From contig ONPG01000002.1 of the NCBI GenBank assembly GCA_900319645.1, positions 62,001 to 126,000 of the forward strand: a stretch of DNA of 64,000 bases. The letters run 5' to 3'. The DNA comes from an uncultured Bacteroidales bacterium. GTDB taxonomy: Bacteria > Bacteroidota > Bacteroidia > Bacteroidales > Paludibacteraceae. Below, piece after piece: positions 1 to 63,366 of the stretch. Numbering within the stretch: position 1 is the stretch's first letter; every line of letters starts with the position of its first letter. Under the pieces are notes generated by a model, which saw nothing but the letters and a program-made list of their open reading frames with translations, was not told where the DNA came from and did no database searches. Made by a program: the position numbers and the translations under genes.

Positions 1-1976
1 ACCGACATGCCGATCAGCGTCACAACGCCGAGCGAGTGCATTGCTGGATGAACGGCAAAGACAAGAATCCCGATGCCGATCAGCATGATTAACGCAGAGA
101 GCATAATCGATTGTTTGTATTGCGGCAGAATCGTTTGACCGGTTCGGCGTTCGTAGAGCAAGCCCTCCACAATAAAAATCGTATAATCGTCGCCCTGACC
201 GAAGATAAACGTCGCCAGGATGATATTGACGATATTGAATTGCAGGCCAAAAATCTGCATGATAGCCACGATCCAAACCCAACTGAGCATCATCGGCACA
301 AAAGCAATCAACGCCACCTTCAAACTGCGAAAACTAAGCCATAAGAACAGAAATACAATCAGCGAACAGGCGATGCCTATATAATCGAAGTTATCGCTCA
401 ACCCCTGCGTCAAACGGCTGAAATCAAAGCTCTTCGCGGGCTTCCAGCCTCTCATCATCTGATAAAAAGGTGCAAAAACACCACGCTTGAATCCCACTTG
501 CGCGGCTTCGTTCTCAATCATCCCGATGACCGCCTCCGCATCGTGCGTCTGCCAATATGCCGTCCAGCGTTCCGCCCTGTTGGCATGGTCCGCAACTTGC
601 CGCATCGGGTTCGCAACCGAATCAAAAAACGCGATATCCGCACGCTGCTGGGCGGTCATATAATTGATACTCGATGGATTCGGATTAAACAAAGGCTTTG
701 GACTGCAGAATAGCGGCGAAAGAACAAGGAAAAGCCCAAGCAGGCCTGTGACAACCAAGGTGCCCTTCCCTAATTCGTGATTTCCCATTCGTAAATTTTC
801 CCTCGGAAGTTTGATCTCGCGGAGCGGAGTAGGTTGCGCGGACATCAGATGCGGCAACACGAAGATGCAAAAAACGATAGTACCAACTAACATCGCAGCA
901 GCAAAGATTCCCAAATGCTGCATCGCTGTCGCTTTGAGAGGCAGCAAGGCCAAAAACGCACCCACCGTCGTTATGTTCCCCACCACCAGCGGTGAGAGCA
1001 CTTCTTCCAGTGTCTGCCTGACCGACCTCGTATAACGCTGGTGTACCAGCAGATGCAACGGATAATTGACCGCAATGCCGATGAGCACGCTCCCTATTCC
1101 CAACACCATAGCGCTCACCGTCGGGGTGAAGATCCTTAGAACAGCCATTCCTGTTAACCAACCGAACGAAACCGACAGCACTATCAGCCACAAGTCGCGC
1201 CGTCGCGGAAAAGCGTAAGCCAGCAACGCCACAATGAGAACCAGTGAAAGCGCAATACAAATCAGCGAATCCAGTTTGATGCGCCGTGCGTTCTCCACTG
1301 CAATCACCGGTGCTCCGATAAGCCGGAGACTCAATTCAGGAAATTGTGAATGGACAATAGACAACTGACCATTGAGGGAATCCAGCAAAGCCGTATTCCG
1401 CTGCGTCTCGGTGCTTCCGTAAGGAGAAGTGATAAAAGCGTAACTTCTGTTCGGGACCTGCTGCGCGCTGAAAGCGGAGAGATCCATCAAACCCAACGGA
1501 TCCGATTGAATAGCAGTAGCCAGAAACCCTGTTCCGGGTGTTGCCAAAATACGCTTGTCGCGCTCCAACGCTGTACGAATAGCCTCCGCTGTAAACAGCG
1601 AATCCAGTTTCTCGTACTTCTCTTCCTCTATATAATAAGGTAATTGCGCGTAAAGATTTCTCAACTGCTCTGAAGGGTCTGTTGAAATATCCAACAACCC
1701 GTTACCGATAACCAGTTCCTCTATCGCTTCTTCGCGGAGGGATTCGTCTCCACCTTCTACAATGACCACGATCTGAGCCGCTGATTGCCGGGACTGAAAC
1801 TCCTTAAGCGCCTCACGGTCTTCATCCTCCAGTGGCAGAAAATCCATGATGTCCTCGTTGTAACGAAGCGTCAATGCCAACACAATCAGCGGAATAAGCA
1901 CTATTGTTAATCCCGACCACAGCCAGCGGCGGTGGGTGCTTAACCAATCGTATATGTGCAGCAACTTATCGTTCAT
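1..1976 (-). CDS. MMPL/RND-family exporter, partial (C-terminus outside window)
   Basis: Starts at ATG 1976 and I followed the frame to the window edge, giving about 658 residues with the C-terminus missing. The N-terminus has a transmembrane helix at about residues 18-38, followed by a periplasmic loop beginning with the D-F-L-P motif. Near the window edge lies the second membrane block, with FGQGDDYTIFIVEGLLYERR-type residues (about 585-605) typical of MMPL domains. MMPL exporters are regular members of aryl-polyene clusters and probably move the lipidated pigment towards the outer membrane (inference). The start overlaps the ligase stop by 11 bp, so the two are probably coupled. Residues about 200-214 are encoded by a degenerate heptamer array, which looks inserted into the periplasmic loop. 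Confidence 0.93.
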   Translation of the reverse strand, partial: MNDKLLHIYDWLSTHRRWLWSGLTIVLIPLIVLALTLRYNEDIMDFLPLEDEDREALKEFQSRQSAAQIVVIVEGGDESLREEAIEELVIGNGLLDISTDPSEQLRNLYAQLPYYIEEEKYEKLDSLFTAEAIRTALERDKRILATPGTGFLATAIQSDPLGLMDLSAFSAQQVPNRSYAFITSPYGSTETQRNTALLDSLNGQLSIVHSQFPELSLRLIGAPVIAVENARRIKLDSLICIALSLVLIVALLAYAFPRRRDLWLIVLSVSFGWLTGMAVLRIFTPTVSAMVLGIGSVLIGIAVNYPLHLLVHQRYTRSVRQTLEEVLSPLVVGNITTVGAFLALLPLKATAMQHLGIFAAAMLVGTIVFCIFVLPHLMSAQPTPLREIKLPRENLRMGNHELGKGTLVVTGLLGLFLVLSPLFCSPKPLFNPNPSSINYMTAQQRADIAFFDSVANPMRQVADHANRAERWTAYWQTHDAEAVIGMIENEAAQVGFKRGVFAPFYQMMRGWKPAKSFDFSRLTQGLSDNFDYIGIACSLIVFLFLWLSFRSLKVALIAFVPMMLSWVWIVAIMQIFGLQFNIVNIILATFIFGQGDDYTIFIVEGLLYERRTGQTILPQYKQSIMLSALIMLIGIGILVFAVHPAMHSLGVVTLIGMS
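1332..1375. repeat. Degenerate heptamer array inside the exporter gene
   Basis: Read on the minus strand the stretch falls into 7-nt units TCAGTTG, TCTATTG, TCCATTC, ACAATTT. It adds about 14 residues in frame to the periplasmic loop of the MMPL protein. Similar words occur at 8911-8948 and 14971-15006. Confidence 0.6.
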
Positions 1977-3279
1977 CGATGAATTTCACAGGCTTGCGGC
2001 TCTTGGGAGGGAAAATGATTTGCTGGATCACATCTGCTGGCAGAATCTCCACAATAGGTGCGACCCGCAGACGCGAACGGAAATGATCTTTCAACGTCTT
2101 GATTGCCTCTTCGGGCTGAATCGTGTTGTCACGCAGGCCGACACGCACAATGACCTCGTCGGTTCCAGCGTCGGACGGACGAACCACCACCACATAATTG
2201 CTCACAAACGGCGTGTTGTCCAGCACATCATTGATGGCCGGCGGATAGATGGTAGTGCCTTTCAGTTTGATCATGTTGTGCTTGCGTCCGATGAGTGGCG
2301 TAAGGCGGTAACTGTTTCGCCCGCAGGCGCAAGGCTCCACCACTTTCGCGGCGATGTCACCTGTCCGGAATCGCAGCAGCGGCATACCTTCGACACCTAA
2401 GGTCGTGATCACCACTTCGCCCGGCTGACCGTCTGGAACAGGCTGATTATCTTCGCCGATGATTTCCACAATAATCAGTTCCGGGTGTACGTGTCCGCCG
2501 CAGCCGTGCTCGCATTCCGAGAACGTTGCCGACATCTCCGTCGATGAATACGTTGCGTACAACTCCACCTCCGGCCATTTGTCGTGAATACGTTGCCCTA
2601 ACAGGTTCAGCGCAAACGCCTGGTCGCGCAGACCCTCTCCGATACCGATAATTTTTCTTATTGACGAATGCCGATAATCGATGTGTTGTTGCTCGGCGTA
2701 GTCGATTAGTTTGAGAATAAACGAAGGCACGCACATGATCGCCGTGGGATGAAGGCGTTCGATGGTGTCCCACTGTAGTTCGGGAATACCGTTTCCCACG
2801 CGGATGATACTTGCGCCCATACGGCGAATGCCCATCCAGTACGCCAAACCGGCCATAAACCGTTTGTCCATCGTCGTCATGAGTTGCAGAATATCCCCTT
2901 TCTTCAGACCCGCACAGGCAAAAGACTTGTGCTCGTTATATGCCAAACGCTCCAAATCTTTCTCCGTGCAACCGAAGACTACCGGGTCGCCCAACGTGCC
3001 GGAAGTGGTAATATAATCGATGATATCTTCCCGTGCTACGCACAGAAAATCATTGTTAAACTGTTGCAAATCAGCTTTCTCTGTAAAAGGAATACGCTGC
3101 AAATCCTCTATCGTGCAAATCGTCGAAGGATCAATCTTATTCTCGGCAAACAGCCGTTGGTAATACGGCGAGTGTGCCGCCAGATACGCTATCTGCGTGC
3201 GCAGTAATTCCTCTTGATATGCGCGGATATCCGCTACTGATTCAAACTCAATATCCATTGTATGCATTCTTTTTTCCAT
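1966..3279 (-). CDS. PaaK-like AMP-dependent ligase activating the aryl starter acid
   Basis: A 437-residue adenylate-forming ligase of the phenylacetate-CoA ligase family. Visible motifs are the phosphate loop TTSGTLGDPV (residues 91-100), YATYSSTEMS (241-250), RFRTGDIA (303-310) and a C-terminal KLKGTT lysine motif near residue 340. A cysteine-rich turn (CEHGC, then CACG) lies in the region where PaaK relatives often bind zinc. In aryl-polyene pathways such a ligase activates 4-hydroxycinnamate and loads it on an acyl carrier protein; that substrate is inferred from the tyrosine ammonia-lyase in the same operon. The chosen ATG at 3279 has AGAGGAAAG about 8 nt upstream and overlaps the hydrolase gene by 46 bp. 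Later ATGs at 3267 and 3258 are possible. Confidence 0.9.
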   Translation of the reverse strand: MEKRMHTMDIEFESVADIRAYQEELLRTQIAYLAAHSPYYQRLFAENKIDPSTICTIEDLQRIPFTEKADLQQFNNDFLCVAREDIIDYITTSGTLGDPVVFGCTEKDLERLAYNEHKSFACAGLKKGDILQLMTTMDKRFMAGLAYWMGIRRMGASIIRVGNGIPELQWDTIERLHPTAIMCVPSFILKLIDYAEQQHIDYRHSSIRKIIGIGEGLRDQAFALNLLGQRIHDKWPEVELYATYSSTEMSATFSECEHGCGGHVHPELIIVEIIGEDNQPVPDGQPGEVVITTLGVEGMPLLRFRTGDIAAKVVEPCACGRNSYRLTPLIGRKHNMIKLKGTTIYPPAINDVLDNTPFVSNYVVVVRPSDAGTDEVIVRVGLRDNTIQPEEAIKTLKDHFRSRLRVAPIVEILPADVIQQIIFPPKSRKPVKFIDER

Positions 3280-4061
3280 TGTTGACTTTCCTCTGTCCCC
3301 TTGCTCTCTGACGCGCCGAAACCGTGTCCGCCGGTGCGATATTGGAGGTATTTGTGCGGTATCCCCTTCGCCGTGAGCGCCGAATCCAGCATCTCGCTGT
3401 TCTGGTATTTCACAATTGGGTCATCCACACAGTTTACCAAAAACACCGGCGGACAATCAGCAGGAATATGTTTCTCAATCGACAGCGAATCCCGCATCTG
3501 CTTGTTCCATTGACGCCAAACGCCCAAAGCGCCTCGGCGCGAACGAACATGGGCATAACGCTTGTCGCTCATCGTCACCACCGGATAAATCGGGCACAAA
3601 AATGCCGGTTTGACCGCAGTTCGGTTGTGCGTATAACTCATCATCGTCAGGTGCCCTCCGGCGGAAAAACCCATTACGCCTATTCGGTTCCTGTCTATCC
3701 GAAGCGAATCCGCATGCTTGTGTATATAACTGAGTGCGTCCTCCACATCGCTCAGCATGTTCGGGTACTTGTTGCCCAAACCGATGACGCGGTAACCGAC
3801 CACAAAAGCGCTGATATTCGCCACGCGGTATTTGAGCACAAACGCATTGATGCCGTTCGCCTGCAGCCATTCCGCCACTTGTCTGCCTTCGTAATTCATG
3901 TCGTGCCAGCAGTAGCTGCCACCCGGACAAACCACCACCGCAATGCCGGTATTCGTCGCGCTGTCCGCCAAATAAGCGGTCAGACGTTCGGTCTTCGCCC
4001 ACAAGCATTGACCATACATGGTCAATACCAAGAACACTGTCATTTGCAAGTATCTTCGCAT
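3234..4061 (-). CDS. Secreted alpha/beta hydrolase (BD-FAE-like esterase)
   Basis: A 275-residue alpha/beta hydrolase with a signal peptide (MRRYLQMTVFLVLTMYGQC). The nucleophile is Ser133 in GFSAGG, the oxyanion region is CPGGSY, the acid is Asp213 or 214 in VDDP, and the base is His246 in GGHGFG. This pattern fits the acetyl-xylan/feruloyl-esterase-like family. Its role in the pigment cluster is unknown; hydrolysis or transfer of the finished polyene ester outside the cytoplasm is a guess. The frame is open to 4250, but the ATG at 4061 gives an RR-containing n-region. The alternative ATG at 4043 forms an ATGA overlap with the preceding stop. Confidence 0.85.
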   Translation of the reverse strand: MRRYLQMTVFLVLTMYGQCLWAKTERLTAYLADSATNTGIAVVVCPGGSYCWHDMNYEGRQVAEWLQANGINAFVLKYRVANISAFVVGYRVIGLGNKYPNMLSDVEDALSYIHKHADSLRIDRNRIGVMGFSAGGHLTMMSYTHNRTAVKPAFLCPIYPVVTMSDKRYAHVRSRRGALGVWRQWNKQMRDSLSIEKHIPADCPPVFLVNCVDDPIVKYQNSEMLDSALTAKGIPHKYLQYRTGGHGFGASESKGTEESQQWKKECIQWILSLNQ

Positions 4062-6881: not shown

Positions 6882-7269
6882 TCTTAAATTCGATGATAGT
6901 GGTGTCTCCGTTTTTCTCGATGAGTTCCACCTGTTTGGCTATGTGGGTCTCTTCATCCATACGGACGATAACCGATTGAAACAGTTTCTTGCTTTCCCGC
7001 TCCATTTTCCCGTCGGTCTTTCCTTCCGACGCAATAGATGCCATAATCATCCGTAGTAACTTTTGCACCTGCGGATTGACATTTGAGCGGTCGCCGTCTA
7101 TTTCCCAAATGACGTTATTCGGTGTCTCGTACGCCCAATGCAGATACTCCGGCGCTCGATAGATCATTTTGCCCGTGGACACCTGCGGTTCGCTGAACAG
7201 GGCGGAGTTCTTCGTCTGTACAAAGTCAGCTTGGATACTTACTATCGCAGCTAAGATAAACGCTAACAT
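6865..7269 (-). CDS. LolA-like periplasmic lipid/lipoprotein carrier
   Basis: A 134-residue protein with a short hydrophobic N-terminus (MLAFILAAIVSI) and the LolA-family opening IQADFVQTK followed by GKMIYRAPEYLHWAYE. LolA-like carriers are standard members of aryl-polyene clusters and are thought to ferry the lipid product across the periplasm; that role is inferred. The signal peptide is short, so cleavage should be close to residue 13. The start ATG 7269 follows the SMR-like transporter gene by 12 bp, and the end overlaps the dehydratase start. Confidence 0.85.
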   Translation of the reverse strand: MLAFILAAIVSIQADFVQTKNSALFSEPQVSTGKMIYRAPEYLHWAYETPNNVIWEIDGDRSNVNPQVQKLLRMIMASIASEGKTDGKMERESKKLFQSVIVRMDEETHIAKQVELIEKNGDTTIIEFKNVVAK

Positions 7270-7281
7270 AATAATCCTTTC

Positions 7282-7632: not shown

Positions 7633-7633
7633 T

Positions 7634-9352: not shown

Positions 9353-9360
9353 TCGGGGAA

Positions 9361-9618: not shown

Positions 9619-10150
9619 ATATAATTTGCATTTTAGCGTAAAATTCATTGGGTTTGCTACACTCACACCAGCCAACTATCAAAGTTGAAAGTTGAAAGTT
9701 GAAAGTGGAAAGGATGATTTGCTCTAACTGTTCCGGGTTGTTGAGAATGTAAAACGATGTTTCTCCTTGGATGTGGTGGCGGATAGCAATCTCTCCGGTA
9801 ACAATGTTCGGCAGGGTATAAACGAAAAGTGCCGGGCTAGGGTAGTAGTTGCCTTCCGAGATTGTAGCCAGATAATCGGTGTCGTTCTTGATGCTGGCAC
9901 TTCGGTTCGCCAAAATGATGGAAATTTTCTCATTTTCACATTTGCTTATTTTCTCTTTTAGCAGTATTTCTGCGGCAATGAAACCGAGTCGGCAAAGAGT
10001 GTCCATCTTGAAGAACTTCGGGTAATCGCCTGCAAAACGACGATAGAGTTCCACAAGCATCTTTTCGCCTGTTTCCGTCGTCGCTATCTGTTGCCCGTCC
10101 AAGAGAACTGATGTCGGCGTGATTTCTATTTCTCGTAGTACTTGGTACAT
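9602..10150 (-). CDS. Short ketosynthase-like protein of flexirubin/aryl-polyene clusters
   Basis: A 182-residue protein resembling the short 3-oxoacyl-ACP-synthase-like proteins of Bacteroidota pigment clusters: FKMDTLCRLGFIAAEILL, ANRSASIKNDTDY, YPSPALFVYTLPNIVTGEIAIRH. It has no KS active-site cysteine motif, so a structural or chain-length role is likely. The start was set to ATG 10150, four bases after the upstream stop; an ATG at 10180 would overlap that gene by 26 bp. Two repeat arrays lie in the frame: residues about 63-76 (KEKISKCENE) and 145-158 (STFNFQLSTL). The first is nearly identical to two arrays in the neighbouring ketosynthase. Confidence 0.82.
   Translation of the reverse strand: MYQVLREIEITPTSVLLDGQQIATTETGEKMLVELYRRFAGDYPKFFKMDTLCRLGFIAAEILLKEKISKCENEKISIILANRSASIKNDTDYLATISEGNYYPSPALFVYTLPNIVTGEIAIRHHIQGETSFYILNNPEQLEQIILSTFNFQLSTLIVGWCECSKPNEFYAKMQIIYGTTD
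9677..9714. repeat. CTTTCAA heptamer array in the KS-like gene
   Basis: On the plus strand GTTGAAA is repeated about four times with a perfect 7-nt period. On the coding strand it reads in frame as STFNFQLSTL. The same unit occurs between genes at 63329-63366. Confidence 0.8.
9923..9960. repeat. EKISKCENE-coding repeat, copy 1
   Basis: Minus-strand units GAAAATA, AGCAAAT, GTGAAAA, TGAGAAA. The word AATAAGCAAATGTGAAAATG is shared with 10211-10252 and, with one change, with 10892-10927. Confidence 0.8.
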
Positions 10151-10154: not shown

Positions 10155-11126
10155 TTACTTCTCAATTCGTATTGCAGCATTCACGCCTCCGAAGCCGGAA
10201 AGCATCTTTATTATTTTCACATTTTCACATTTGCTTATTTTTACATTTTTTGCCATTTCTGCGCAGAGGATGGTCTCGAGTACACCAGCGGCCCCCATCG
10301 TGTGACCGAAATAGGGTTTGAGCACACTCATCGGTACATCCTCTAATCCTGCCCGTTGGAGAGCGATACGCTCCATGTCATCGTTATAAAGCGTACCTGT
10401 TCCGTGCACGCCAACGAGTGCTATCTCGGAGGGTTGTATGCCTTCTGTTACGTCCATCAAACAAAGGTAAGCGCCTTCGCCCGTACGGCTTGGAGCAGAG
10501 ATGTGGTTTGCGTCGTTGTGGATGCTGCCCGCCACTAATCGCCAGCTGTCGGTCGGCTCTGTTGTATAGATAATCGTCGCTGCGGCTTCGCCGAGATTGA
10601 GTCCTTTGCGATTCGGATCAAACGGTGTGCAGGGTTCGGGAGAGAGAGCCTTGAATGCCTGAAAACCACTGACGATGAACCGGCTCTGAAGATCACATCC
10701 CACGACTACGGCTTGTCGGTACAAACCGCTCTCCAATAAGCGCATAGCGGTTATCTGCGCGCAGACACCGGATGTGCAGGCATTGCTCGCCACTATCGGG
10801 GGATTCGGGTTGTCGAAATGCGCAGCTATCTGTTGTGCCGGAGTCCACAGGTCTAAATGGTCGCCTTTGGTGGTCGAGAGGATGAAGATGGTTTGCTCAT
10901 TTTCACATTTACTTATTTTCTCATTTAAAGCTAAGTTAATGCTTTTGATGCATAGCGGAATAAATTCCTGCGGGGTGTCAAAGAGCGAAGCACAGAACGG
11001 CTCTACATTGGCAAATCGGTCGGAGTAGTGTTTTAATCCGCTACGACCTGCTTGCACAGCTTCTATATTCGCCTGTGTGCCTTCGCCTAAAGGCGAGATA
11101 ATACTATGTCCTGCACAATAAATCAT
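10155..11126 (-). CDS. Beta-ketoacyl-ACP synthase, compact form
   Basis: A 323-residue ketosynthase, shorter than the usual 390-420. The triad is present: Cys117 in SNACTSG, His241 in VGVHGTGTLYNDD, His275 in KPYFGHTMGAAG. It should extend the polyene with malonyl units. Two in-frame repeat arrays are visible, at residues about 66-78 (NEKISKCENE) and 291-305 (KNVKISKCENVKII), both on likely surface segments away from the triad. The start ATG 11126 overlaps the dehydratase stop as ATGA. The N-terminal region between residues 1 and 60 is more compact than in FabF. Confidence 0.9.
   Translation of the reverse strand: MIYCAGHSIISPLGEGTQANIEAVQAGRSGLKHYSDRFANVEPFCASLFDTPQEFIPLCIKSINLALNEKISKCENEQTIFILSTTKGDHLDLWTPAQQIAAHFDNPNPPIVASNACTSGVCAQITAMRLLESGLYRQAVVVGCDLQSRFIVSGFQAFKALSPEPCTPFDPNRKGLNLGEAAATIIYTTEPTDSWRLVAGSIHNDANHISAPSRTGEGAYLCLMDVTEGIQPSEIALVGVHGTGTLYNDDMERIALQRAGLEDVPMSVLKPYFGHTMGAAGVLETILCAEMAKNVKISKCENVKIIKMLSGFGGVNAAIRIEK
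10211..10252. repeat. EKISKCENE-coding repeat, copy 2
   Basis: Same word as copy 1, in the same strand and reading frame, here coding for VKISKCENVKII near the C-terminus of the compact ketosynthase. Confidence 0.8.
10892..10927. repeat. EKISKCENE-coding repeat, copy 3
   Basis: Third near-identical copy, coding for NEKISKCENE near residue 70 of the compact ketosynthase. All three copies lie within 1 kb and are read in the same frame. Confidence 0.8.
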
Positions 11127-11512: not shown

Positions 11513-11513
11513 T

Positions 11514-13753: not shown

Positions 13754-14971
13754 TTATATTCTCCTTAGAACGATCGCACTATTTGTTCCTCCAAATCCGA
13801 AACTGTTACTTAACACGGTCTGAAGAGGTGTCTCTATCGTTTGTGTGGCAAGCCGTAAGGTGGCAGCACTCGGGTCTATTTGCTCGAGGTTGATGTTCGG
13901 CGCTACGAATCTGCCTTGCATCATCAGAATGCTATAAACCGCTTCGCTCGCTCCTGCCATCCAGCACTCATGTCCGGTCATGGATTTCGTGCTGCTGATC
14001 CATGTGTGCTTGCCTCCGAATATACGCGTCAATGCTATCGCTTCTTCCTCGTCACCTTGCTTCGTAGATGTAGCGTGGGCATTCACATAATCTATCTCCT
14101 CCGCTTTTATGCCTGCGTCCTCGAGTGCGCGTTGCATGGCAATGAACGAGCCTTCGCTGCTGGGCTGTGAAATGCCTCCTCCGTTGCTGGAGAACCCATA
14201 ACCGCACACTTCTGCGAGAATGGTTGCTCCGCGGGCGATGGCATGGTCGTAGTCTTCCAACACCAACGCAGCCGCTCCTCCGCTGGGCACTAATCCGTCA
14301 CGGGCGGTGTCGAACGGCCGGCTGGCTTTGGCGGGATCTTCCACACGCGCCGAGAACGTACCGAGCGCGTCAAAAGCCGCCATGGCGTACGGGTTCACTT
14401 CCTGCGCGCCGCCGACTAAGACCATCTCCTGCAAGCCCTGGCGAATGAACATCGCCCCTAAACCAATCGAGTGGCTGCCGCTGGCACAAGCTGCGCTGAC
14501 CGAGAAATTGATGCCTCTCAGGTGGAAGATCGTACTGAGATTCATGTTCACGGTCGAGTTCATGGACTGAAAAATGAGTCCGCTTCCCAACAGCGAGGTG
14601 TCATGTTTCTCCAGCATCGTCTCGTGCATCTCCACGGTCGGTTTGGCTGTACTGTCGTTGCCGAAGAGGATTCCCACTTCGTTTGCTTGCAAATAACTAT
14701 CATCTATCTGCGCTTGCTCGAACGCTTCGCGTGCAGCCATATAGGCATACATCGCTTCCTGCGACAAACCCACACGCAGACGGCGATGCAGATATTCTTT
14801 CAGATCCGGCGTCTCCACAATGCCGGTTAGCGGACTACGGAAACCGTACTCCGTACGCGCAGCATCGATGCCGATGCCGCTTTTTCCTGCGCGCAGCGAA
14901 GCTTCCACTTCCGCTTTGTTGCGACCGATGCACGACCAAATGCCAATTCCTGTTACTACAACTCTTTTCAC
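13754..14971 (-). CDS. Beta-ketoacyl-ACP synthase (FabF-like)
   Basis: A 405-residue full-length FabF-type ketosynthase: Cys162 in VSAACASGSH, NAHATSTKQGD, KSMTGHECWMAG and NSFGFGGTNS. The likely start is GTG 14971 (MKRVVVTGIG); the frame also opens at TTG 14980, but those bases belong to a heptamer array (AATTGAG) that runs straight into the start codon. This leaves no normal spacing for a Shine-Dalgarno site, though Bacteroidota rely on it weakly. The middle VNMNLSTIFHLRG region is typical of the third ketosynthase in aryl-polyene clusters. Confidence 0.92.
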   Translation of the reverse strand: MKRVVVTGIGIWSCIGRNKAEVEASLRAGKSGIGIDAARTEYGFRSPLTGIVETPDLKEYLHRRLRVGLSQEAMYAYMAAREAFEQAQIDDSYLQANEVGILFGNDSTAKPTVEMHETMLEKHDTSLLGSGLIFQSMNSTVNMNLSTIFHLRGINFSVSAACASGSHSIGLGAMFIRQGLQEMVLVGGAQEVNPYAMAAFDALGTFSARVEDPAKASRPFDTARDGLVPSGGAAALVLEDYDHAIARGATILAEVCGYGFSSNGGGISQPSSEGSFIAMQRALEDAGIKAEEIDYVNAHATSTKQGDEEEAIALTRIFGGKHTWISSTKSMTGHECWMAGASEAVYSILMMQGRFVAPNINLEQIDPSAATLRLATQTIETPLQTVLSNSFGFGGTNSAIVLRRI

Positions 14972-15006
14972 AATTCTCAATTCTCAATTATCAATTGTCC
15001 ATTATC
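14971..15006. repeat. Heptamer array abutting the ketosynthase start codon
   Basis: Plus strand reads CAATTCT, CAATTCT, CAATTAT, CAATTGT, CCATTAT with a 7-nt period. It fills the whole gap between the FabG-like gene and the ketosynthase GTG. Confidence 0.8.
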
Positions 15007-15730
15007 CTATTCCTCCGGCTATTTCGATAACTTGTCCGGTGATGTATGCCGCTTCGTCGGAACAGAGGAAAGAGACGAGCGCTGCTACTTCTTCCGGCTG
15101 ACCGAAACGCCCTGCCGGAATGGTCTTTTTCAGTTCCGCTTCATCCAGATCCGCGGTCATGTCTGTCGCAATAAATCCCGGTGCAACGGCGTTGACCGTC
15201 ACTTTGCGGGCGGCTACTTCTTTGCTCAACGCTTTAGTCGCGCCGATAAGTGCCGCCTTGGCTGCGGAATAATTGACCTGTCCGGGCAACCCGCTCACGC
15301 CCGAGATGGAACTGATGTTCACGATTCTTCCGTTCCGCGCGCGAACCATCGCCGGCAGCACATGCTTGGTGGTGTAATAGAACCCTTCCGTCGTCGTCCG
15401 TATCACCTCGTGCCAATCTTCTTCTCCCATGAAGACCAGTAAACCATCTTTTCGGATACCCGCATTGTTGACCAACACGGATATATGTTCTCCTTCGTGC
15501 ACCGCATTCCAAGCCGTCAATGCCGCTTCGATAGACTTGCCGTCCGAGACATCGAAAGGCAGCAACTCTGCCTGACCGCCATTCGCTTCAATAGCGGATT
15601 TCGTGGCTTCGGCGGCTTCGGTATTGCTGTGATAATTGATCAAAACCGTGTAACCGTCTTTGGCTAAACGTTCTGCTATCGCGCGACCTATTCCGCGGCT
15701 TGCACCTGTGACTAAAGCGTATTTATTCAT
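15002..15730 (-). CDS. FabG-like 3-ketoacyl-ACP reductase
   Basis: A 242-residue short-chain dehydrogenase. The cofactor motif is TGASRGIG (residues 8-15), with NNAG at 88-91, catalytic Ser near 140-141 (NISSISG) and Tyr154-Lys158 in YSAAK. It would reduce the 3-keto group of each extension step with NADPH. The length equals FabG. It overlaps the end of the ammonia-lyase gene by 8 bp, which suggests translational coupling between starter synthesis and chain reduction. Its 3-prime end meets the CAATTNT heptamer array. Confidence 0.95.
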   Translation of the reverse strand: MNKYALVTGASRGIGRAIAERLAKDGYTVLINYHSNTEAAEATKSAIEANGGQAELLPFDVSDGKSIEAALTAWNAVHEGEHISVLVNNAGIRKDGLLVFMGEEDWHEVIRTTTEGFYYTTKHVLPAMVRARNGRIVNISSISGVSGLPGQVNYSAAKAALIGATKALSKEVAARKVTVNAVAPGFIATDMTADLDEAELKKTIPAGRFGQPEEVAALVSFLCSDEAAYITGQVIEIAGGIG

Positions 15731-20008: not shown

Positions 20009-21676
20009 TTATTTGCCTCTTTCGAGCAACAAAGTGCGTGTCGGCTGGTCGCAGACCTCGGTCGGACCGTAGTACTGAATCGGCCCCGGATAGATGTAAC
20101 TGGTCTCAGGATCAGCCCAAGCCTCGCGATGTGCCTGCAGATATTGGAACGGCTTGCCGTTGAGGTCCACAAGTGCTTTCTGGATAACCGGTTTCATCTT
20201 ACCGTTACGTTTCTCCATGTTCATCATCATCGTGATAGGTACACCACCTGCAATCCACTCGGCTGCGGGCTTGGTGAGATTGCGAACGAGCGACATGTAT
20301 CCGGTCTTGCCTGCTGCGATGAGGTGCGTAGCATTCACGCCGATCGAGTAGCAGTAGTCGGCATCGAAGTTCGACGGGATAGCGCAACGGCCTTCGTAGC
20401 CGAAGAAGTGGTTAAGGGCAGAGAACTTGCCTTTGTACTCGCCGTTTGCTTTGAGCACAGCCAGACGTTTCTGAACCATTTCGATGAGCAGTTTCTCGGT
20501 CTCGATCTGCGATACCATAACGTTTCCGTGCGGGTCACGGTCGAGCGTGAGCTGCTTGGCGATGCCCTTCGGAAGCGAACGGAACAACTCGCAGGAAGCC
20601 GGTGTCAGTTTGGATTTTACGTATTCGCGTTTTGCGTCGTCACCGTCGAGCGAAGTGAACTCCTCGTTGTTGGCGAGCATGTCGTTGAGCTCCTGAATGA
20701 GGACACGCATAGCCGGAATAAACTCGATCAGACCTTCAGGAATGAGCACGGTTCCGAAGTTCAGACCTGCGTTTGCACGGGCAACAATGACCTTTACGAT
20801 ACCCTCAACGATCTCGTTCAGCGTCATCTTCTTGGCCTCAACCTCCTCGGAGATCAAGCAGATATTCGGCTGGCTCTGGAGCGCACACTCCAATGCAATA
20901 TGGCTTGCCGAACGGCCCATGAGGCGGATGAAGTGCCAGTATTTCTTCGCGGAGTTAGCGTCGCGCTGGATGTTACCGATAAGCTCGCTATAAACCTTGC
21001 AAGCGGTGTCGAAACCGAAGGAAGTCTCGATCATCTCGTTCTTGAGGTCGCCGTCGATGGTCTTCGGGCAACCGATCACCTGAATGCCGCATTTCTTCTG
21101 CAGATAGTACTCGGCGAGAACGCAAGCGTTGGTGTTCGAGTCGTCACCACCGATGATCACTACAGCCTTGATTCCCAGTTTGTTGCAGATCTCGATACCA
21201 TTGTCAAACTGCCAGGTCTCCTCCAGTTTGGTACGACCTGAACCGATGATATCGAAACCGCCGGTGTTGCGGTACTCGTCGATGATAGCACCTGTCAACT
21301 CCTGATATTTGCCGTCAATCAGACCCGAAGGACCGCCGAGGAAACCGTACAGTTTGTTCTCCGGATTGAGTGCTTTCAGACCGTCATACAGACCGCTGAT
21401 GACATTGTGACCGCCGGGAGCCTGACCGCCGGAAAGGATCACGCCGACATTGAATGGTTCTTCTTTCGACTTTTGACTTTCGACTTTCGACTCAGCCACC
21501 GGCTCCATGGTAATAACCGGCAGACCGTATGTGTTCGGGAAGAGTTTCTGAATCTCCTCCTGGTCTGCTACTGACTGAGTTTTCTCGCCTTCTACGAGGC
21601 GAACTGCTCCTTGCAAAGCTACCGGCATCTTCGGCTTATAGGCCTGACGCGCAATTTGTAATGGACTTTTTTGCAT
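20009..21676 (-). CDS. pfp: PPi-dependent 6-phosphofructokinase
   Basis: A 555-residue diphosphate-fructose-6-phosphate phosphotransferase of the long (plant/Bacteroidota) type. It shows the GGQAPGG phosphate loop, GGDDSNTNA and the PKTIDGDL substrate block with the catalytic Asp. It converts fructose 6-phosphate and PPi to fructose 1,6-bisphosphate reversibly in glycolysis. Residues about 60-71 ([13 protein letters not shown]) are encoded by an AAGTCGA heptamer array in the N-terminal linker, before the first core strand. Upstream lie a normal promoter and a damaged second copy of it. Confidence 0.96.
21462..21494. repeat. AAGTCGA heptamer array inside pfp
   Basis: Minus strand units GAGTCGA, AAGTCGA, AAGTCAA, AAGTCGA, AAGAAGA: five near-perfect 7-nt units coding for [12 protein letters not shown]. 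Confidence 0.8.
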
Positions 21677-21691
21677 AATGGTATATTTTAG

Positions 21692-21730
21692 TGTTTTAAC
21701 GATTTAACAATTTAACGATTTAACAATATT
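21692..21730. repeat. Octamer array upstream of pfp
   Basis: TTTAACGA and TTTAACAA alternate (four units of 8 nt) in the untranslated leader between the pfp promoter and its start. Confidence 0.75.
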
Positions 21731-52444: not shown

Positions 52445-53377
52445 CTATTTTATCCCGTTGAGGAATGCCTTGGTTTCCATTCGTTTTTTGCCGGGCACTT
52501 GCAGTTCGAGGATACGCACTGCGCCCTCTTTGCAGGGGATGATGATATCTTTCTTCGATATCTCGGTATCTCGATATTTCGATATTTCGACCTTATAGAT
52601 CTTGACGTTCTCGAAGGTCTGTTGGTTGATAGTGAGGTTCGCCCATGCTGCCGGATACGGACTCAGTCCGCGGACGAAGTTGTGTACCTCTTCGGCGGTT
52701 TTGTCCGCAAAATTGATCTCGCAATCCTCTTTGAAGATCTTCGGCGCGGGTCGCAGTTCCGAGGATTCGGGCTGCGGTGTTGTAGGTAGAGCAATGCCTT
52801 TGTTCTCGCAATCTATGATGAGATCCACCGTGTTCAGTACCATTTTCTTGCTTAATTCCATCAGCCGGTCGTGTACAGAGCCGACGTTCTCATCGTCACC
52901 GATGGGGATACGTTCCTGCAGGATCATGTTGCCTGTGTCTATCTCATGCTTGAGCATAAAAGAGGTCAGTCCGGTCTCTTTGTCGCCGTTTATCACTGCC
53001 CAGTTGATTGGCGCTGCACCGCGGTACTGCGGGAGCAACGAACCGTGGATGTTGAATGTACCTAAACGCGGCATTGCCCAAACAACTTCGGGCAACATGC
53101 GAAACGCCACTACGATCTGCAGATCGGCGTGGTACGAACGCAGTTCTTCCACAAACGCTTCGTCTTTCAGTTTTTCCGGTTGTAGCACAGGAATACCTGC
53201 TTCCAATGCGTATTTCTTGACGTCCGAGAACTGCATTTGGTGTCCGCGTCCGGCTGGTTTGTCCGGCATAGTAACCACGGCTACCACGTTGTAACCGCCT
53301 TCTACCAACGCACGCAGACTTGCCGTAGCAAACTCCGGCGTGCCTAAAAATATGATTCTAAGATCAGATTTATTCAT
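52445..53377 (-). CDS. fmt: Methionyl-tRNA formyltransferase
   Basis: A 310-residue Fmt: FLGTPEFA at the start, MPDKPAGRG, NIHGSLLPQYRGAAPINWAV with the catalytic Asn/His, and a C-terminal tRNA-binding domain. Residues about 261-276 (KVEISKYRDTEISKKD) are encoded by an exact octamer array within that C-terminal domain. It formylates initiator Met-tRNA. Confidence 0.97.
   Translation of the reverse strand: MNKSDLRIIFLGTPEFATASLRALVEGGYNVVAVVTMPDKPAGRGHQMQFSDVKKYALEAGIPVLQPEKLKDEAFVEELRSYHADLQIVVAFRMLPEVVWAMPRLGTFNIHGSLLPQYRGAAPINWAVINGDKETGLTSFMLKHEIDTGNMILQERIPIGDDENVGSVHDRLMELSKKMVLNTVDLIIDCENKGIALPTTPQPESSELRPAPKIFKEDCEINFADKTAEEVHNFVRGLSPYPAAWANLTINQQTFENVKIYKVEISKYRDTEISKKDIIIPCKEGAVRILELQVPGKKRMETKAFLNGIK
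52548..52592. repeat. Octamer array inside fmt
   Basis: Minus strand TCGAAATA, TCGAAATA, TCGAGATA, CCGAGATA, TCGAAGAA: five 8-nt units in frame. Confidence 0.85.
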
Positions 53378-53414
53378 TTTCGCATTTCCTCATTTTTTTA
53401 CTTTCGCATTTTGT
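53376..53414. repeat. CATTTTCG-type array between lgt and fmt
   Basis: CATTTTCG, CATTTCCT, CATTTTT, then ACTTTCGCATTTTG; it codes for the last residues of Lgt (QNAKVKK) and reaches the fmt start. Confidence 0.6.
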
Positions 53415-54323: not shown

Positions 54324-54367
54324 ATTTACGATTTACAAATTCGTTAATTTTCAGTTTTCAATTTTCA
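54324..54367. repeat. Heptamer array between nadK and lgt
   Basis: ATTTACG, ATTTACA, then AATTTTC, AGTTTTC, AATTTTC, AATGTTC; two array types joined. Confidence 0.75.
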
Positions 54368-54376
54368 ATGTTCCCC

Positions 54377-55455: not shown

Positions 55456-57333
55456 GTGAAAAATATTGTAGTTCGATTTTGCGGAGATTCGGGTGACGGC
55501 ATGCAGTTGACGGGCAATATGTTCGCGCAGTTGGCAGCCGAAATGGGAAACGAGATCTCCACGTTGCCGGATTTTCCGGCAGAGATTCGTGCGCCGCAAG
55601 GGACACTGGGCGGCGTGAGTGCTTTCCAAGTGGAATTAGGCAAGGAGGTTTATACCTCGGGTGACAAAGCGGATGTGGTGGTGGCGATGAACGCTGCTGC
55701 ACTCAAAGTATGTACATTGGGTTCGCATTTCAACCACCCCGAGGCGCGTTTTGACGACCAGTTCGCGCTCTACCACCGTCACGCTATCGTGATCGTGGAT
55801 ACGGACAGCCTGACGGACAAAGACCTTGAGAAAGCCCAATACCACACCGCCAATCCGTTTGAGGAATTAGGTGTACCCGAGTCTGTCCAGATTGTGCCCG
55901 TGGCGCTTACCACGCTCACGAAAGAGGCTTTGAAAGAAAGCGGAATGGACAACAAAGCGGTTCTGAAATGCCGGAACATGTTTGCGTTGGGACTGATCTA
56001 CTGGCTATTCGACGAGCCGATGGAGAAAGCTATTCATCTGCTGGAGGAGAAATTCAAGAAGAAACCGGCTCTTGTGGCTCCGAACACCAAAGTGATGGTG
56101 GACGGCTATAACTACGGTCAGAACCTTGCGCTCAACGTACAGCAAGTACACCTGGAGGAAGTACAAGGGAAGGACGTACAAAGTACAAAGGGCACATATA
56201 CCTCTATTGCGGGCAACAAAGCGACGGCCTGGGGACTGATTGCGGCGGCAGAGAAAGCCGGCAAACGGCTGTTCTTGGGCTCGTATCCTATTACTCCTGC
56301 GACGGATATCCTGCACGAGTTGGCAGGACGCAAAGATATGAATGTGATGGCTGTTCAGGCCGAGGACGAGATAGCCGGTGTGTGCACGGCTATCGGCGCG
56401 GCTTTTGCCGGCGACCTGGCTTGCACGAGCACGAGTGGCCCAGGTCTGAGTTTGAAGAGCGAGGCTGTCGGTCTGGCTGTGATGGCGGAGTTGCCGTTAG
56501 TGGTTATCGACGTGCAGCGTGGCGGTCCGAGTACGGGTCTTCCGACCAAGACCGAACAGACAGACCTGCTGCAGGCACTTTATGGTCGTAACGGTGAGTG
56601 TCCGGCAGTGGTGATTGCGGCCTCTTCGTCCGCCAACTGTTTTGATTACGCGTACGAGGCGTGCAAGATAGCGTTGGAAAATATGACACCCGTAGTGTTG
56701 CTGACCGATACCTATCTGGCAAACGGGACGGCGCTGTGGCGGATCCCGAAATTAGCGGAACTGCCGGAGATCAAGCCGCAAAGTGTGCCGGAAGAACTGA
56801 AAGGAAAATACAACCCGGCTCTGCGTGACGAGCGTGGAGTTCGTTACTGGGCGTACCCGGGCTTGGAAGGGTACGAGCACAGGAATATCGGTCTGGAGCG
56901 TGACGCCGAGCGTGGCACTATCTCCACCAACCCTGAGAACCACGAGCGGATGGTTGTTGCCCGTAAACATAAGATCGAGCAGATAGCCGATGCTATTCCC
57001 GAGCTGAAGGTCATCCACGGTGAAGGACTGGGGGGCAAATGCACCAAGGACACGCTGCTGGTAGGATGGGGTAGTACCGAAGGCCATTTGCATGCAGCAG
57101 CCAATGAGTTAGGGTGCGACTTGGCGCATTTCAACTATATCTGTCCGCTTCCGAAGAACACCCGCGAAGTGCTGAGAGGATACAAACGCGTGATTGTCTG
57201 CGAGCTGAATACCGGTCAGTTTGCGGCTTACCTCAGAAGCCAGTTCCCCGAGATTGAGATAGAACAATATAACGAGATCCAGGGACAGCCGTTCGCTGTA
57301 GAAAGAATAGTGCACTTCGTGCAGAGTGAATAA
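55456..57333 (+). CDS. korA: 2-oxoacid:ferredoxin oxidoreductase, fused gamma-alpha subunit (KorA)
   Basis: A 625-residue chain. Residues 1-190 are the gamma domain (VVRFCGDSGDGMQLTG, PDFPAEIRAPQGTLGGVS); residues 255-625 are the alpha domain (GSYPITPATDILHEL, AEDEIAGVCTAIGAAFAG, TSGPGLSLKSEA). With KorB it oxidises 2-oxoglutarate (or a related 2-oxoacid) to the CoA ester and reduces ferredoxin. The start is GTG 55456. The linker between domains (about residues 227-244, VQGKDVQSTKG) carries a GTACAAA repeat array. Confidence 0.95.
   Translation: MKNIVVRFCGDSGDGMQLTGNMFAQLAAEMGNEISTLPDFPAEIRAPQGTLGGVSAFQVELGKEVYTSGDKADVVVAMNAAALKVCTLGSHFNHPEARFDDQFALYHRHAIVIVDTDSLTDKDLEKAQYHTANPFEELGVPESVQIVPVALTTLTKEALKESGMDNKAVLKCRNMFALGLIYWLFDEPMEKAIHLLEEKFKKKPALVAPNTKVMVDGYNYGQNLALNVQQVHLEEVQGKDVQSTKGTYTSIAGNKATAWGLIAAAEKAGKRLFLGSYPITPATDILHELAGRKDMNVMAVQAEDEIAGVCTAIGAAFAGDLACTSTSGPGLSLKSEAVGLAVMAELPLVVIDVQRGGPSTGLPTKTEQTDLLQALYGRNGECPAVVIAASSSANCFDYAYEACKIALENMTPVVLLTDTYLANGTALWRIPKLAELPEIKPQSVPEELKGKYNPALRDERGVRYWAYPGLEGYEHRNIGLERDAERGTISTNPENHERMVVARKHKIEQIADAIPELKVIHGEGLGGKCTKDTLLVGWGSTEGHLHAAANELGCDLAHFNYICPLPKNTREVLRGYKRVIVCELNTGQFAAYLRSQFPEIEIEQYNEIQGQPFAVERIVHFVQSE
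56138..56189. repeat. GTACAAA-type array in korA
   Basis: GTACAGCAA, GTACACC, GTACAAGG, GTACAAA, GTACAAAGG words in the gamma-alpha linker; shares ACAAAGTACAAAGG with two minus-strand genes. Confidence 0.65.
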
Positions 57334-57352
57334 TTAACAATTAATAATTAAT
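57332..57352. repeat. AATTAAC/AATTAAT heptamers after korA
   Basis: Three 7-nt units in the gap before the four-helix gene. A related ATTAACTA/ATTAATTA stretch lies at 57741-57780. Confidence 0.6.
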
Positions 57353-57375
57353 ATCTCGTGAAGCGGGTGTAAGTG

Positions 57376-57747
57376 ATGGATAATTCCAAACAAAACATAG
57401 GAGTTTTAGAGGAAAAGACCTATTTGTTCGCATTGAGAATCATAAAGGCGTATAAATATCTAACCAATAAAAATGTATATGTCCTATCCAAACAACTTCT
57501 TCGTTCCGGTTCTTCCATAGGCGCAAATTGCAGAGAGGCAACTTATGCACAAAGCAAACAGGATTTTATTAGTAAATTAAGTATCGCCCTCAAAGAAACT
57601 AATGAAACAATCTATTGGCTGGAGTTATTACATGATTCAGACATTATCTCAGATGATAGTTTTGAATCCATTCACAAAGATGCGCTCGAGATTCTAAAAT
57701 TATTAATATCAATTATTAAAACCACGAAGTCTAATATCCAAAAATAA
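57376..57747 (+). CDS. Four-helix-bundle protein (23S rRNA intervening-sequence family)
   Basis: A 123-residue protein with the family pattern KTYLFALRIIKAYKYL, LSKQLLRSGSSIGANCREA and SKQDFISKLSIALKETNETIYWLELL. These proteins were first met in 23S rRNA intervening sequences and are now seen at many loci; the function is unknown. It is lower in GC than korA and korB and separates them, with repeats on both sides, so it looks inserted. Confidence 0.92.
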   Translation: MDNSKQNIGVLEEKTYLFALRIIKAYKYLTNKNVYVLSKQLLRSGSSIGANCREATYAQSKQDFISKLSIALKETNETIYWLELLHDSDIISDDSFESIHKDALEILKLLISIIKTTKSNIQK

Positions 57748-57785
57748 AATAAATATTAACTATACACTATTAATTATTCATTCAT

Positions 57786-58829
57786 ATGGAAGCTTCACAA
57801 TTCAAATCTGATCAATACGTACGATTCTGCCCGGGTTGCGGCGACCACGCTATCTGTATGGCGCTGCAAAAAGCGATGGCGCAGATAGGAATCCCGACAC
57901 ACGAAGTGGCTGTCATCAGCGGTATCGGTTGCTCAAGCCGAATGCCCCACTATCTGAATACATACGGATTCAACACGATACACGGCCGCGGCGGCGCTAT
58001 CGCAACAGGCGTCAAGACTTCGCACCCGGAACTGACCGTTTGGCAGATGAGCGGAGACGGCGACTGTCTGGCTATCGGCGGTAACCATTTCATCCACGAG
58101 ATCCGCAGGAACGTGGATCTGAACGTGTGTATGTTCAACAACCGTATCTATGGTCTGACCAAAGGACAGTACTCGCCGACGAGTCCGAAAGGTTTTGTCA
58201 GCAAATCCAGTCCGTTTGGTACCGTAGAGCGTCCGTTCGTGCCCGCCGAACTGGTGCTGGGTGCCCGCGGTACGTTCTTCGCCAGAACGCTGGACGTAGA
58301 TATGCCGACGACCGTCGATTGTCTGGTGGCAGCCCAGCAGCACAAAGGTTGCTCGATAGTAGAGTGTCTGGTTAACTGCGTGATCTTTAACAACGGTACG
58401 CACGCGTGGATAGCAGACCGTGAGCAACGCGCCGAGCATAGTATTGTGCTCAAACACGGCGAGAAAATGATTTTCGGCAAGAACAACGACAAAGGTCTCG
58501 CCATCGAGATTGACTCGCAAACGTTTGTGCCGAAGCTGATTGTTGTGCCGGCAGACGACGCGCGTGTGCTCGTACACGACGCTCATCAGCCTGATCCGAC
58601 GCTTCACCGTCTCCTTGCCCTCATGGGGCAAGACCGGAACCTGGAGGTTCAAAAGGACGAGACACAAAACGCAAAGGACGACCTGCCTATCGCCTTAGGC
58701 GTGATCCGCAACGTGGAAGCCGAGACCTACAACGACGCTGTGAACAAGCAGATAGCCGAGGTGCGCGGCAAAGCGAAAGCCAAGTGTTTCGATGAGTTGA
58801 CCGCTACGCTGGACCAGTGGAAAATGTAG
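57786..58829 (+). CDS. korB: 2-oxoacid:ferredoxin oxidoreductase beta subunit (KorB)
   Basis: A 347-residue beta subunit. TPP site: FCPGCGDHAICMAL, then GDGDCLAIGGNHFIHEIRRN and NNRIYGLTKGQYSPTS. It pairs with KorA upstream. Residues about 287-298 (VQKDETQNAKDD) come from a degenerate AAGGACGA-type array within the C-terminal part. Confidence 0.95.
   Translation: MEASQFKSDQYVRFCPGCGDHAICMALQKAMAQIGIPTHEVAVISGIGCSSRMPHYLNTYGFNTIHGRGGAIATGVKTSHPELTVWQMSGDGDCLAIGGNHFIHEIRRNVDLNVCMFNNRIYGLTKGQYSPTSPKGFVSKSSPFGTVERPFVPAELVLGARGTFFARTLDVDMPTTVDCLVAAQQHKGCSIVECLVNCVIFNNGTHAWIADREQRAEHSIVLKHGEKMIFGKNNDKGLAIEIDSQTFVPKLIVVPADDARVLVHDAHQPDPTLHRLLALMGQDRNLEVQKDETQNAKDDLPIALGVIRNVEAETYNDAVNKQIAEVRGKAKAKCFDELTATLDQWKM
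58647..58681. repeat. Degenerate heptamer array in korB
   Basis: GTTCAAA, AGGACGA, GACACAA, AACGCAA, AGGACGA, read in frame. Confidence 0.5.
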
Positions 58830-58863
58830 AAAATTGAAAACTGAAAACTGAAAATTGAAAATT
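58829..58863. repeat. GAAAATT/GAAAACT heptamer array after korB
   Basis: Five perfect-length 7-nt units directly after the stop codon. Confidence 0.85.
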
Positions 58864-63240: not shown

Positions 63241-63328
63241 TTTTATTGACATTATTCGTGCGAATAATAACAAGTCATAGCCGATTATTAAAAAATGACA
63301 ATAAATTGGAAGGACCGAGAGCGATATT

Positions 63329-63366
63329 AAATTGAAAATTGAAAGTTGAAAGTTGAAAGTTGAAAG
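63329..63366. repeat. GTTGAAA heptamer array
   Basis: AATTGAA, AATTGAA, AGTTGAA, AGTTGAA, AGTTGAA, AGTTGAA; same unit as inside the KS-like gene at 9677-9714. A GAGGGCGTG/CACGCCCTC hairpin follows at about 63366-63395 and could end the next gene. Confidence 0.85.

What the first reader, a model, noticed from the sequence alone, without database searches (positions are those of the whole stretch)
1332..63366. Heptamer arrays invade coding sequences across the window
More than 25 short arrays with a 7-nt (rarely 8-nt) period occur, not only between genes but in frame inside at least ten genes (MMPL, fusion gene, FabZ, two KS, KS-like, pfp, htrA, fmt, korA, korB). Each coding array gives a 7-residue period. 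Because 7 is not a multiple of 3, in-frame survival needs a matching total length, so this points to selection or to length-correcting loss. Heptanucleotide repeats of this general kind are known from cyanobacteria; I do not know a description of such coding insertions in this lineage.
Basis: partly seen in the sequence, partly recalled or inferred. Interest (0 to 1): 0.85.

Follow-up and report, generated by a model that had tools for sequence, protein, structure and literature searches.

The report
Heptamer arrays bracket mobile S23 genes
Short 7- and 8-letter DNA repeats are scattered through this rumen bacterium's genome, inside some proteins too, and in it and in distantly related bacteria the same kind of repeat often sits, mirrored, on both sides of a small gene (S23/IVP) whose role is still unclear, which suggests that repeats and gene form one mobile system.

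Summary
The arrays are real: 20 with a 7- or 8-nt period at score 10 or more, against 0.3 in Markov sequence; 8 lie in listed genes, against 0.11 after codon shuffling. In the two genes tested with homologues, pfp and fmt, the array is an in-frame insertion in a variable loop. The korA and korB arrays start at the stop codons.

The larger result was not in the finding. The window holds an S23/23S-rRNA-IVP gene (57373-57747) between korA and korB, with arrays on both sides. IVP genes of the genus (33 examined), of other Bacteroidales families (29) and of plasmids, mostly cyanobacterial (12), have strongly similar inverted flanks in 17, 19 and 9 cases, against 17 of 1375 control genes, three of them IVP genes. 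Families without IVP hits carry about 30-fold fewer arrays (0.33 against 10.6 per 100 kb).

Best reading: an array-terminated, IVS-like mobile element that enters operon junctions, can decay to solo arrays, and whose arrays are copied elsewhere. The association is firm; mobility and mechanism are inferred. Ten searches of an open-access library showed no report of the link.

The parts
57373..57747 (+). S23 / 23S_rRNA_IVP four-helix-bundle gene (124 aa) in sense between korA and korB
   Evidence: Pfam PF05635 E 3.5e-26; solved homologue 2rld E 3.2e-36; full-length at this junction only in the window and L002 among about 90 junctions read
57329..57353 (+). left array of the IVP element, period 7, overlapping the korA stop codon
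   Evidence: pairs with the right array in the RNA fold
57750..57782 (+). right array of the IVP element, period 7, inverted relative to the left, ending just before the korB start
   Evidence: inverted score 32 against direct 17 for these flanks (locus L125)
55456..57333 (+). korA, upstream neighbour
   Evidence: Pfam POR, POR_N
57786..58829 (+). korB, downstream neighbour
   Evidence: Pfam TPP_enzyme_C
58829..58863 (+). 7-nt array after korB, not coding
21463..21492 (-). coding 7-nt array in pfp (AAAGTCG family), residues 62-72
   Evidence: insertion relative to 27 of 29 congeners aligned; 25-nt core at 4 places in this genome
52555..52590 (-). coding 8-nt array in fmt, residues 263-275
   Evidence: same loop holds other units or no array in congeners
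9681..9712 (-). 7-nt array in ORF 9602-10180
   Evidence: score 22.5
9924..9954 (-). 8-nt array in ORF 9602-10180; 21-nt core identical to the array at 10213
10213..10240 (-). 8-nt array in the KS-like ORF 10155-11126; similar to the arms of an IVP element in two congeners (L349, L358)
10892..10926 (-). third copy of the same 8-nt array family, in the KS-like ORF
14967..15007 (+). 7-nt array at the junction of a KS gene and a short-chain dehydrogenase gene
21686..21727 (+). 8-nt array just upstream of pfp
53375..53395 (+). 8-nt array at the fmt/lgt junction, member of the same dispersed family as 9924
54348..54373 (+). 7-nt array between lgt and NAD kinase
63329..63366 (+). 7-nt array upstream of the 1358-aa ORF

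Best explanation
Heptamer/octamer arrays and stand-alone S23/IVP genes belong to one system: an array-terminated, IVS-like mobile element. SHOWN: IVP genes of about 370 nt lie between flanks with 7/8-nt repeats whose units match each other at the same locus, in most cases inverted (45 of 74 examined); they sit mostly in sense between co-directional genes; at two junctions followed, relatives are empty, hold unrelated IVPs with other arrays, hold broken IVPs between kept arrays, or hold arrays alone; array sequences recur at unlinked sites, some inside genes; array load follows IVP presence across families. INFERRED: the inverted arms pair in the transcript, as the terminal repeats of 23S rRNA IVSs do, so that operons tolerate the insert; the IVP protein, a relative of the retroelement protein Avd, takes part in movement or copying; arrays grow by slippage in a 7/8-nt register and are copied to new sites; loss of the IVP leaves solo arrays; inside genes only frame-keeping copies in tolerant loops survive selection.
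For: Bracketing: inverted similarity >=29 in 17/33 genus IVPs, 19/29 from other Bacteroidales families and 9/12 plasmid IVPs, against 17/1375 control genes, three of them IVP genes. Flank autocorrelation peaks at lag 7 and its multiples in all three sets; lag 8 is clear in the order set and weak in the other two. Arms match within a locus, not across loci: own median 29, cross-locus median 16 and 95th percentile 23. Polarity: GC skew positive upstream and negative downstream in 36%, 66% and 67%, against 20% of controls. Sense between co-directional genes: 27/33 and 19/29 against 50/108 small ORFs. Turnover: korA-korB and the junction before a CoA-transferase-like gene; own-genome hairpin relic without IVP whose arms match the L157 element, scores 69 and 70. 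Related IVPs at different loci carry related arms, 0 of 5000 permutations. Solo arrays of this genome resemble genus IVP arms more than arms from other families (22 against 6 of 52 at >=30). Dispersed copies, reversed control 0 in both: 24 near matches to a 21-mer at about 19 sites, 45 exact copies of a 25-mer in 16 of 61 genomes. Co-occurrence: 45 arrays in 424 kb of IVP-rich against 2 in 612 kb of IVP-free families, p 1.6e-4; only 2 of the 45 lie within 400 nt of an IVP.
Against: No target-site duplication, transposase or movement seen. By strict array scoring (>=10 within 120 nt) the enrichment is smaller: either flank 48.5% of genus IVPs against 24.8% of controls and 16.5% of small ORFs, both flanks 12.1% against 3.3% and 3.6%. 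Arrays far outnumber IVPs (4 IVPs over the cut-off in this genome; 44 arrays in 416 kb). In 10 other genomes solo arrays were not like the one IVP sampled from the same genome (0 of 30 at >=24, against 4.5% of 420 cross pairs). Congeners without a found IVP still have arrays (22 in 344 kb, against 14 in 100 kb with IVP). Five of 33 genus, 4 of 29 order and 1 of 12 plasmid IVPs have strong direct similarity. RNA pairing is only moderate: z -2.0, 3 of 100 shuffles as good; duplex energies beat cross-locus pairs, but only 18%, 38% and 58% pass the control 5th percentile, and 15% do in the direct orientation. Among array pairs in general, direct outnumber inverted 84 to 35. IVPs above 70% identity share arms in only 2 of 7 non-orthologous pairs. 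Some fmt units resemble the local codons, so duplication in place may explain part.
Confidence: 0.55

Rival explanations
1. Arrays come only from polymerase slippage with a 7-8 nt register (Mrazek's proposal as quoted in PMC4679880 and PMC4692102); IVP genes merely prefer to enter array-rich operon junctions or hairpins.
For: Array units are diverse (146 units in 383 genus arrays); several fmt units contain the local codons; direct array pairs outnumber inverted ones; arrays outnumber IVPs.
Against: Insertion into a direct array would leave direct, not inverted, arms; related IVPs carry related arms at different loci; exact 25-mers with the same internal variant recur at unlinked sites; array load differs about 30-fold with IVP presence.
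Confidence: 0.3
2. Arrays are regulatory or translational spacers selected at gene junctions (MacGregor's proposal for TAACTGA); the IVP link is secondary.
For: Many arrays lie between stop and start codons of neighbouring genes.
Against: Unit and presence turn over among congeners at one junction, and many have none; arrays also lie inside proteins; no link to IVP is expected.
Confidence: 0.08
3. Coding arrays are kept because the periodic peptides are useful.
For: In-frame inserts persist in fmt and pfp.
Against: Residues differ completely among close relatives at the same loop, and some lack them; this fits tolerance.
Confidence: 0.04
4. Composition, assembly or search artefact.
For: Most genomes here are metagenome assemblies; gene calls for controls are crude.
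Against: Markov and codon-shuffle nulls, complete plasmid records, and three separate sets agree.
Confidence: 0.03

Closest known systems
Intervening sequences (IVS) of 23S rRNA with the S23/IVP ORF (PMC4990558, abstract lines and passages seen)
   Same: Same protein family by name; element of 428 nt; ORF inside a stem formed by terminal inverted repeats; called a selfish element, function and origin unclear
   Different: Here it lies between protein genes, and the arms are tandem 7/8-nt arrays with locus-specific units
Heptanucleotide repeats of cyanobacteria and Xanthomonas, and TAACTGA repeats of Beggiatoaceae (PMC4692102, passages; PMC4679880, abstract, sections 3, 12, 15 and passages)
   Same: 7-nt arrays, mostly intergenic, some at operon junctions, some inside ORFs; length and sequence vary between relatives
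   Different: Word searches of both texts for intervening, four helix and S23 gave 0; here many units rather than one or a few, and a link to IVP genes
Avd accessory protein of diversity-generating retroelements (PMC10053308, one passage)
   Same: PF05635 resembles Avd according to that passage
   Different: I did not search for a reverse transcriptase or template repeat near these IVP genes
Foldback-type transposons with tandem-repeat inverted ends, and REP/RAYT elements (recalled, no call)
   Same: Core between inverted repetitive ends; dispersed ends without the gene
   Different: No transposase seen; unit sequence is specific to each locus

Membership tests
S23 / 23S_rRNA_IVP (PF05635) | profile match over the curated cut-off across the whole domain | tested here: met
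   91.9 bits against a 33.8 cut-off; positions 7-105 of 106; 2rld match
23S rRNA IVS element | inserted in a 23S rRNA gene | tested here: not met
   between korA and korB; no rRNA in the window by Rfam
23S rRNA IVS element | terminal inverted repeats that close a stem around the ORF | tested here: met
   fold: left and right arrays pair; inverted score 32; stability only moderate (z -2.0)
23S rRNA IVS element | cleavage by RNase III | not testable with these tools
   needs RNA experiments
Long simple sequence repeats, 7-nt class | 7-nt tandem arrays above chance | tested here: met
Transposon with transposase | transposase gene and target-site duplication | tested here: inconclusive
   only the IVP ORF lies between the arms at korA-korB; no duplication was identified there by eye, but arrays would hide a short one
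Diversity-generating retroelement | reverse transcriptase and template/variable repeats | not tested
   not searched

The most novel reading that the evidence does not exclude
S23/IVP genes with inverted heptamer arms are a widespread, unrecognised class of mobile element, found here in Bacteroidota, in Cyanobacteriota and in one Pseudomonadota plasmid, and its activity is the source of the heptanucleotide repeats long noted in such groups, including insertions that rewrite protein loops; the 23S rRNA IVS is one special landing site of it.
Probability: 0.4. Interest if true: 0.93.

Novelty: new variant of a known kind. Interest (0 to 1): 0.84.

Why it matters
Two old puzzles, why some unrelated bacteria carry many 7-nt arrays and what stand-alone S23/IVP genes are, may have one answer. 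The link gives direct tests (remove the IVP, watch the arrays), could explain patchy distributions that were put down to unknown horizontal transfer, and shows gene junctions and protein loops being rewritten by short arrays.

Tried and rejected
Independent slippage alone as the source of all arrays: rejected as sufficient because exact 25-mers with the same internal variant recur at unlinked sites, and a 30-mer occurs at 8 places in 7 loci with differing flanks, several in open frames of 150 codons or more. It remains possible for part of the fmt cases.

Solo arrays as copies of the same genome's IVP arms: not supported in other families, where one IVP per genome was sampled; supported in the genus (66 genus arms against 58 others).

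General inverted pairs as a finder of new cargo genes: in 3.2 Mb, 7 inverted pairs with a gap of 250-700 nt, 2 with an IVP between; the other 5 not resolved. Both arms had to pass the array score, so IVP pairs can be missed.

RNA duplex energies as proof of pairing: only moderate. fmt and pfp orthologues in the korB loci: no hits but the window itself.

Link of the 25-mer to genomes whose sampled IVP has AAAGTCG-type arms: 4 of 5 against 12 of 56, p 0.015; chosen after seeing the data, IVPs sampled one per genome, so not used.

Rows dropped: three PF05635 hits of the own genome below the cut-off (L126-L128); 10 korB loci with the gene on the minus strand and one truncated locus at korA-korB, and at least three of the loci read there are duplicates of others; 5 distant fmt rows whose loop was not parsed; L368 was translated in the wrong frame in the alignment, its DNA row is valid; 8 of the 62 genus and order IVPs were left out of the IVP profile and (one for a stop, seven not entered by me), which leaves 66 elements with the 12 plasmid ones. 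Two IVP-rich genomes (G092, G157) gave fewer than 1000 readable bases and count as zeros in the rank test. G+C bands were computed with unreadable bases counted in the length.

Choice of genomes for co-occurrence: the 20 genomes with most IVP matches (9 or more) and the first 20 listed of 34 without a match; two stretches each.
Full report
WHAT THE WINDOW IS. The window is part of a 2.64-Mb, 48-contig assembly, 84% complete. Its KorB is closest to genomes labelled Bacteroidales or Paludibacteraceae, many from rumen. It holds ketosynthases, an aromatic amino acid lyase and acyltransferases and housekeeping genes such as pfp, fmt, lgt, secA, korA and korB.

THE OBSERVATION. I scored runs of identity at a fixed lag. 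At score 10 or more the window has 12 arrays of period 7 and 8 of period 8, against means of 0.0 and 0.3 in 20 third-order Markov sequences. In 416 kb of this genome, window included, periods 7, 8 and 11 and some multiples stand out. Eight arrays lie mostly inside 28 listed ORFs, where codon shuffling gives 0.11. So the core claim holds. The count of ten genes does not: I find 7 ORFs at that cut, and the korA and korB arrays begin at the stop codons.

CODING ARRAYS ARE INSERTIONS. Two of the 7 ORFs were tested. For pfp, 58 of 61 genomes including our own have a hit, and the 29 congener loci returned were aligned. One (L191) shares the array residues; L189 has other residues at the same length; 27 are 4-6 residues shorter. 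For fmt, 39 of 41 genomes including our own have a hit; 20 congeners were fetched, and 16 rows including the window could be parsed. Loops are 43 nt without an array in three species; 11 of 16 rows have a 7/8-nt array (some weak, score 8.5 to 9.5), with loops of 58-67 nt and at least six different units (AAAGTCG, TCGAAATA, GGACAAT, GGTTATG and others); two rows have loops of 58 and 61 nt without one. One protein loop has thus received different arrays in close relatives. That all lengths keep the frame is what any intact gene must show.

THE IVP GENE. Between korA and korB lies a PF05635 gene, 23S_rRNA_IVP, related to solved structure 2rld, with arrays on both sides. This led to a test on other IVP genes. 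In the genus, 31 of 41 genomes have IVP hits over the cut-off; in the order, 84 of 119, with up to 20 matches in one genome. I examined the flanks of 33 genus IVPs and 29 IVPs from other families, that is all loci returned apart from three weak hits (four from this genome, otherwise one per genome), and 12 of 25 plasmid records.

BRACKETING. Local alignment of the upstream 200 nt with the reverse complement of the downstream 200 nt scores 29 or more in 17/33, 19/29 and 9/12, against 17/1375 control genes; three of those 17 are themselves IVP genes. Direct similarity of that strength is less common: 5/33, 4/29 and 1/12. Strict array scoring gives a smaller contrast: an array at 10 or more within 120 nt on either side in 48.5% of genus IVPs, 24.8% of controls and 16.5% of small ORFs. 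Flank autocorrelation peaks at lag 7 and its multiples in all three sets; lag 8 is clear only in the order set. The units differ from locus to locus but match within a locus: for example TTAGGCA before and TGCCTAT after the gene (L166), AGTAGGG before and CTCCCTA after in Nostoc (L222), and GAGGACG-type repeats in Azospirillum lipoferum (L224). By eye, an IVP on a contig of the viral collection (L380) shows the same, and another (L379) less clearly. The G-rich strand tends to run towards the gene.

SENSE AND OPERON JUNCTIONS. By a crude gene caller, 27/33 and 19/29 IVPs lie in sense between two co-directional genes, against 50/108 small ORFs. In 11 annotated plasmid cases, 8 are in sense to both neighbours and 3 antisense to both; three sit inside cas operons. 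PMC3936711 (one passage seen) had noted IVP genes in cas loci; that passage does not mention repeats.

TURNOVER AT ONE SITE. At korA-korB 90 junctions could be read, at least three of them duplicates. In 38 the gap is 12 nt or less; many others have arrays of differing units (by eye); the window (also as L082) and L002 have a full IVP, and L015 and L067 have IVP fragments between kept arrays. At a junction before a gene that reads like a CoA-transferase (name by eye), of 20 congeners 8 have 4-5 nt, 2 have 25-26 nt without an array, 5 have arrays alone, 4 have an IVP (in one the upstream gene was not recognised), and this genome has a hairpin of inverted arrays with no IVP, whose arms match those of the IVP element L157 (scores 69 and 70). 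Three further species have IVPs there, two 59% alike and a third only 16-20% like them, with different arms.

ARMS TRAVEL WITH THE GENE. Among 66 elements, IVPs 55-70% identical at non-orthologous loci share arm similarity of 24 or more in 33% (55-60) and 64% (60-70) of pairs, against 2-9% in the bins below 55%; above 70% it is 2 of 7 pairs. In 0 of 5000 permutations of arms does the mean for pairs above 50% reach the observed one; the permutation does not allow for relatedness of the host genomes. Solo arrays of this genome are closer to genus IVP arms than to arms from other families or to unit-shuffled arrays: 22, 6 and 5 of 52 at score 30. The opposite result, from 10 other genomes with one sampled IVP each, is 0 of 30 comparisons.

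DISPERSAL. The 21-nt core of the octamer array in ORFs 9602-10180 and 10155-11126 has 24 matches with up to 3 mismatches in this genome, at about 19 separate sites; the reversed control has none. An exact 25-mer with one internal variant occurs 45 times in 16 of 61 genomes, 4 in this one, control none. A 30-mer is found at 8 places in 7 loci with differing flanks, several in open frames.

CO-OCCURRENCE. Twenty IVP-free families: 2 arrays in 612 readable kb, and a Markov copy of them gives 3. Twenty IVP-rich families, two of them almost unreadable: 45 in 424 kb, Markov copy 0. Rank test p 1.6e-4. Other periods rise only twofold. The contrast holds within rough G+C bands, though the middle band has a single IVP-rich genome. 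Only 2 of the 45 arrays lie within 400 nt of an IVP, so it is not due to IVP arms. Inside the genus the contrast is weaker: 6.4 against 14 per 100 kb.

MECHANISM. I favour an IVS-like element. In 23S rRNA the IVS carries the S23 ORF inside a stem of terminal repeats that RNase III cleaves in vitro (PMC4990558, passages). In the window the two arrays pair in the predicted fold and close around the gene, with modest significance. The IVP family is said to resemble Avd (PMC10053308, one passage), which hints at a role with nucleic acid. How arrays are copied is not shown. What sets the 7/8 register is not shown either; slippage is the proposal in print.

LITERATURE. Ten searches of an open-access library listed no paper that by title or abstract start joins S23/IVP genes with heptamer arrays; I opened seven of the papers listed, in part. 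The two main heptamer papers do not contain the words intervening, four helix or S23. Of note, Xanthomonas campestris, rich in GGGAATC heptamers by PMC4692102, is also the source of the structure Xcc0516, whose homologues PMC3936711 compares with IVP proteins. Subscription journals are not covered, so print elsewhere cannot be excluded.

LIMITS. Crude gene calls for controls; metagenome assemblies, so a missing IVP may be a missing contig; one IVP per genome in most tests; no experiment.

Noticed in passing
window 38070-38104 (-): DUF805b RNA motif (RF02914), 42 bits, the only Rfam hit besides the tRNA.
   Followed up: no
window 22259-22780 and 35029-35640: Two intergenic stretches about 12.9 kb apart with similar 11-nt, 21-nt and AT-rich 8-nt repeats; period 11 is also a peak in 416 kb of the genome.
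   Followed up: no
window 46645-47004: Purine-rich tandem repeats with periods 13, 19 and 25 just upstream of secA.
   Followed up: no
L126 (G000 C16), L035 3136-3690: Longer four-helix-like proteins (about 185 aa; L126 a PF05635 hit below cut-off, L035 by eye) also lie beside 8-nt arrays.
   Followed up: partly
L217, L220, L221: IVP genes inside cas operons of cyanobacterial plasmids, with arrays around them.
   Followed up: partly
L122, L129, L130, L137: Compound arms in which short units alternate with small palindromic pieces (GACCGCTTCGCTG type), giving longer units.
   Followed up: partly
window 3234-17798: Cluster with aromatic amino acid lyase, ketosynthases and O-methyltransferase, perhaps for an aryl-polyene-like pigment (pathway name recalled).
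   Followed up: no
L102 6832-7397: A gene that reads like ribosomal protein L17 (by eye) is flanked by inverted 7-nt arrays without an IVP.
   Followed up: no
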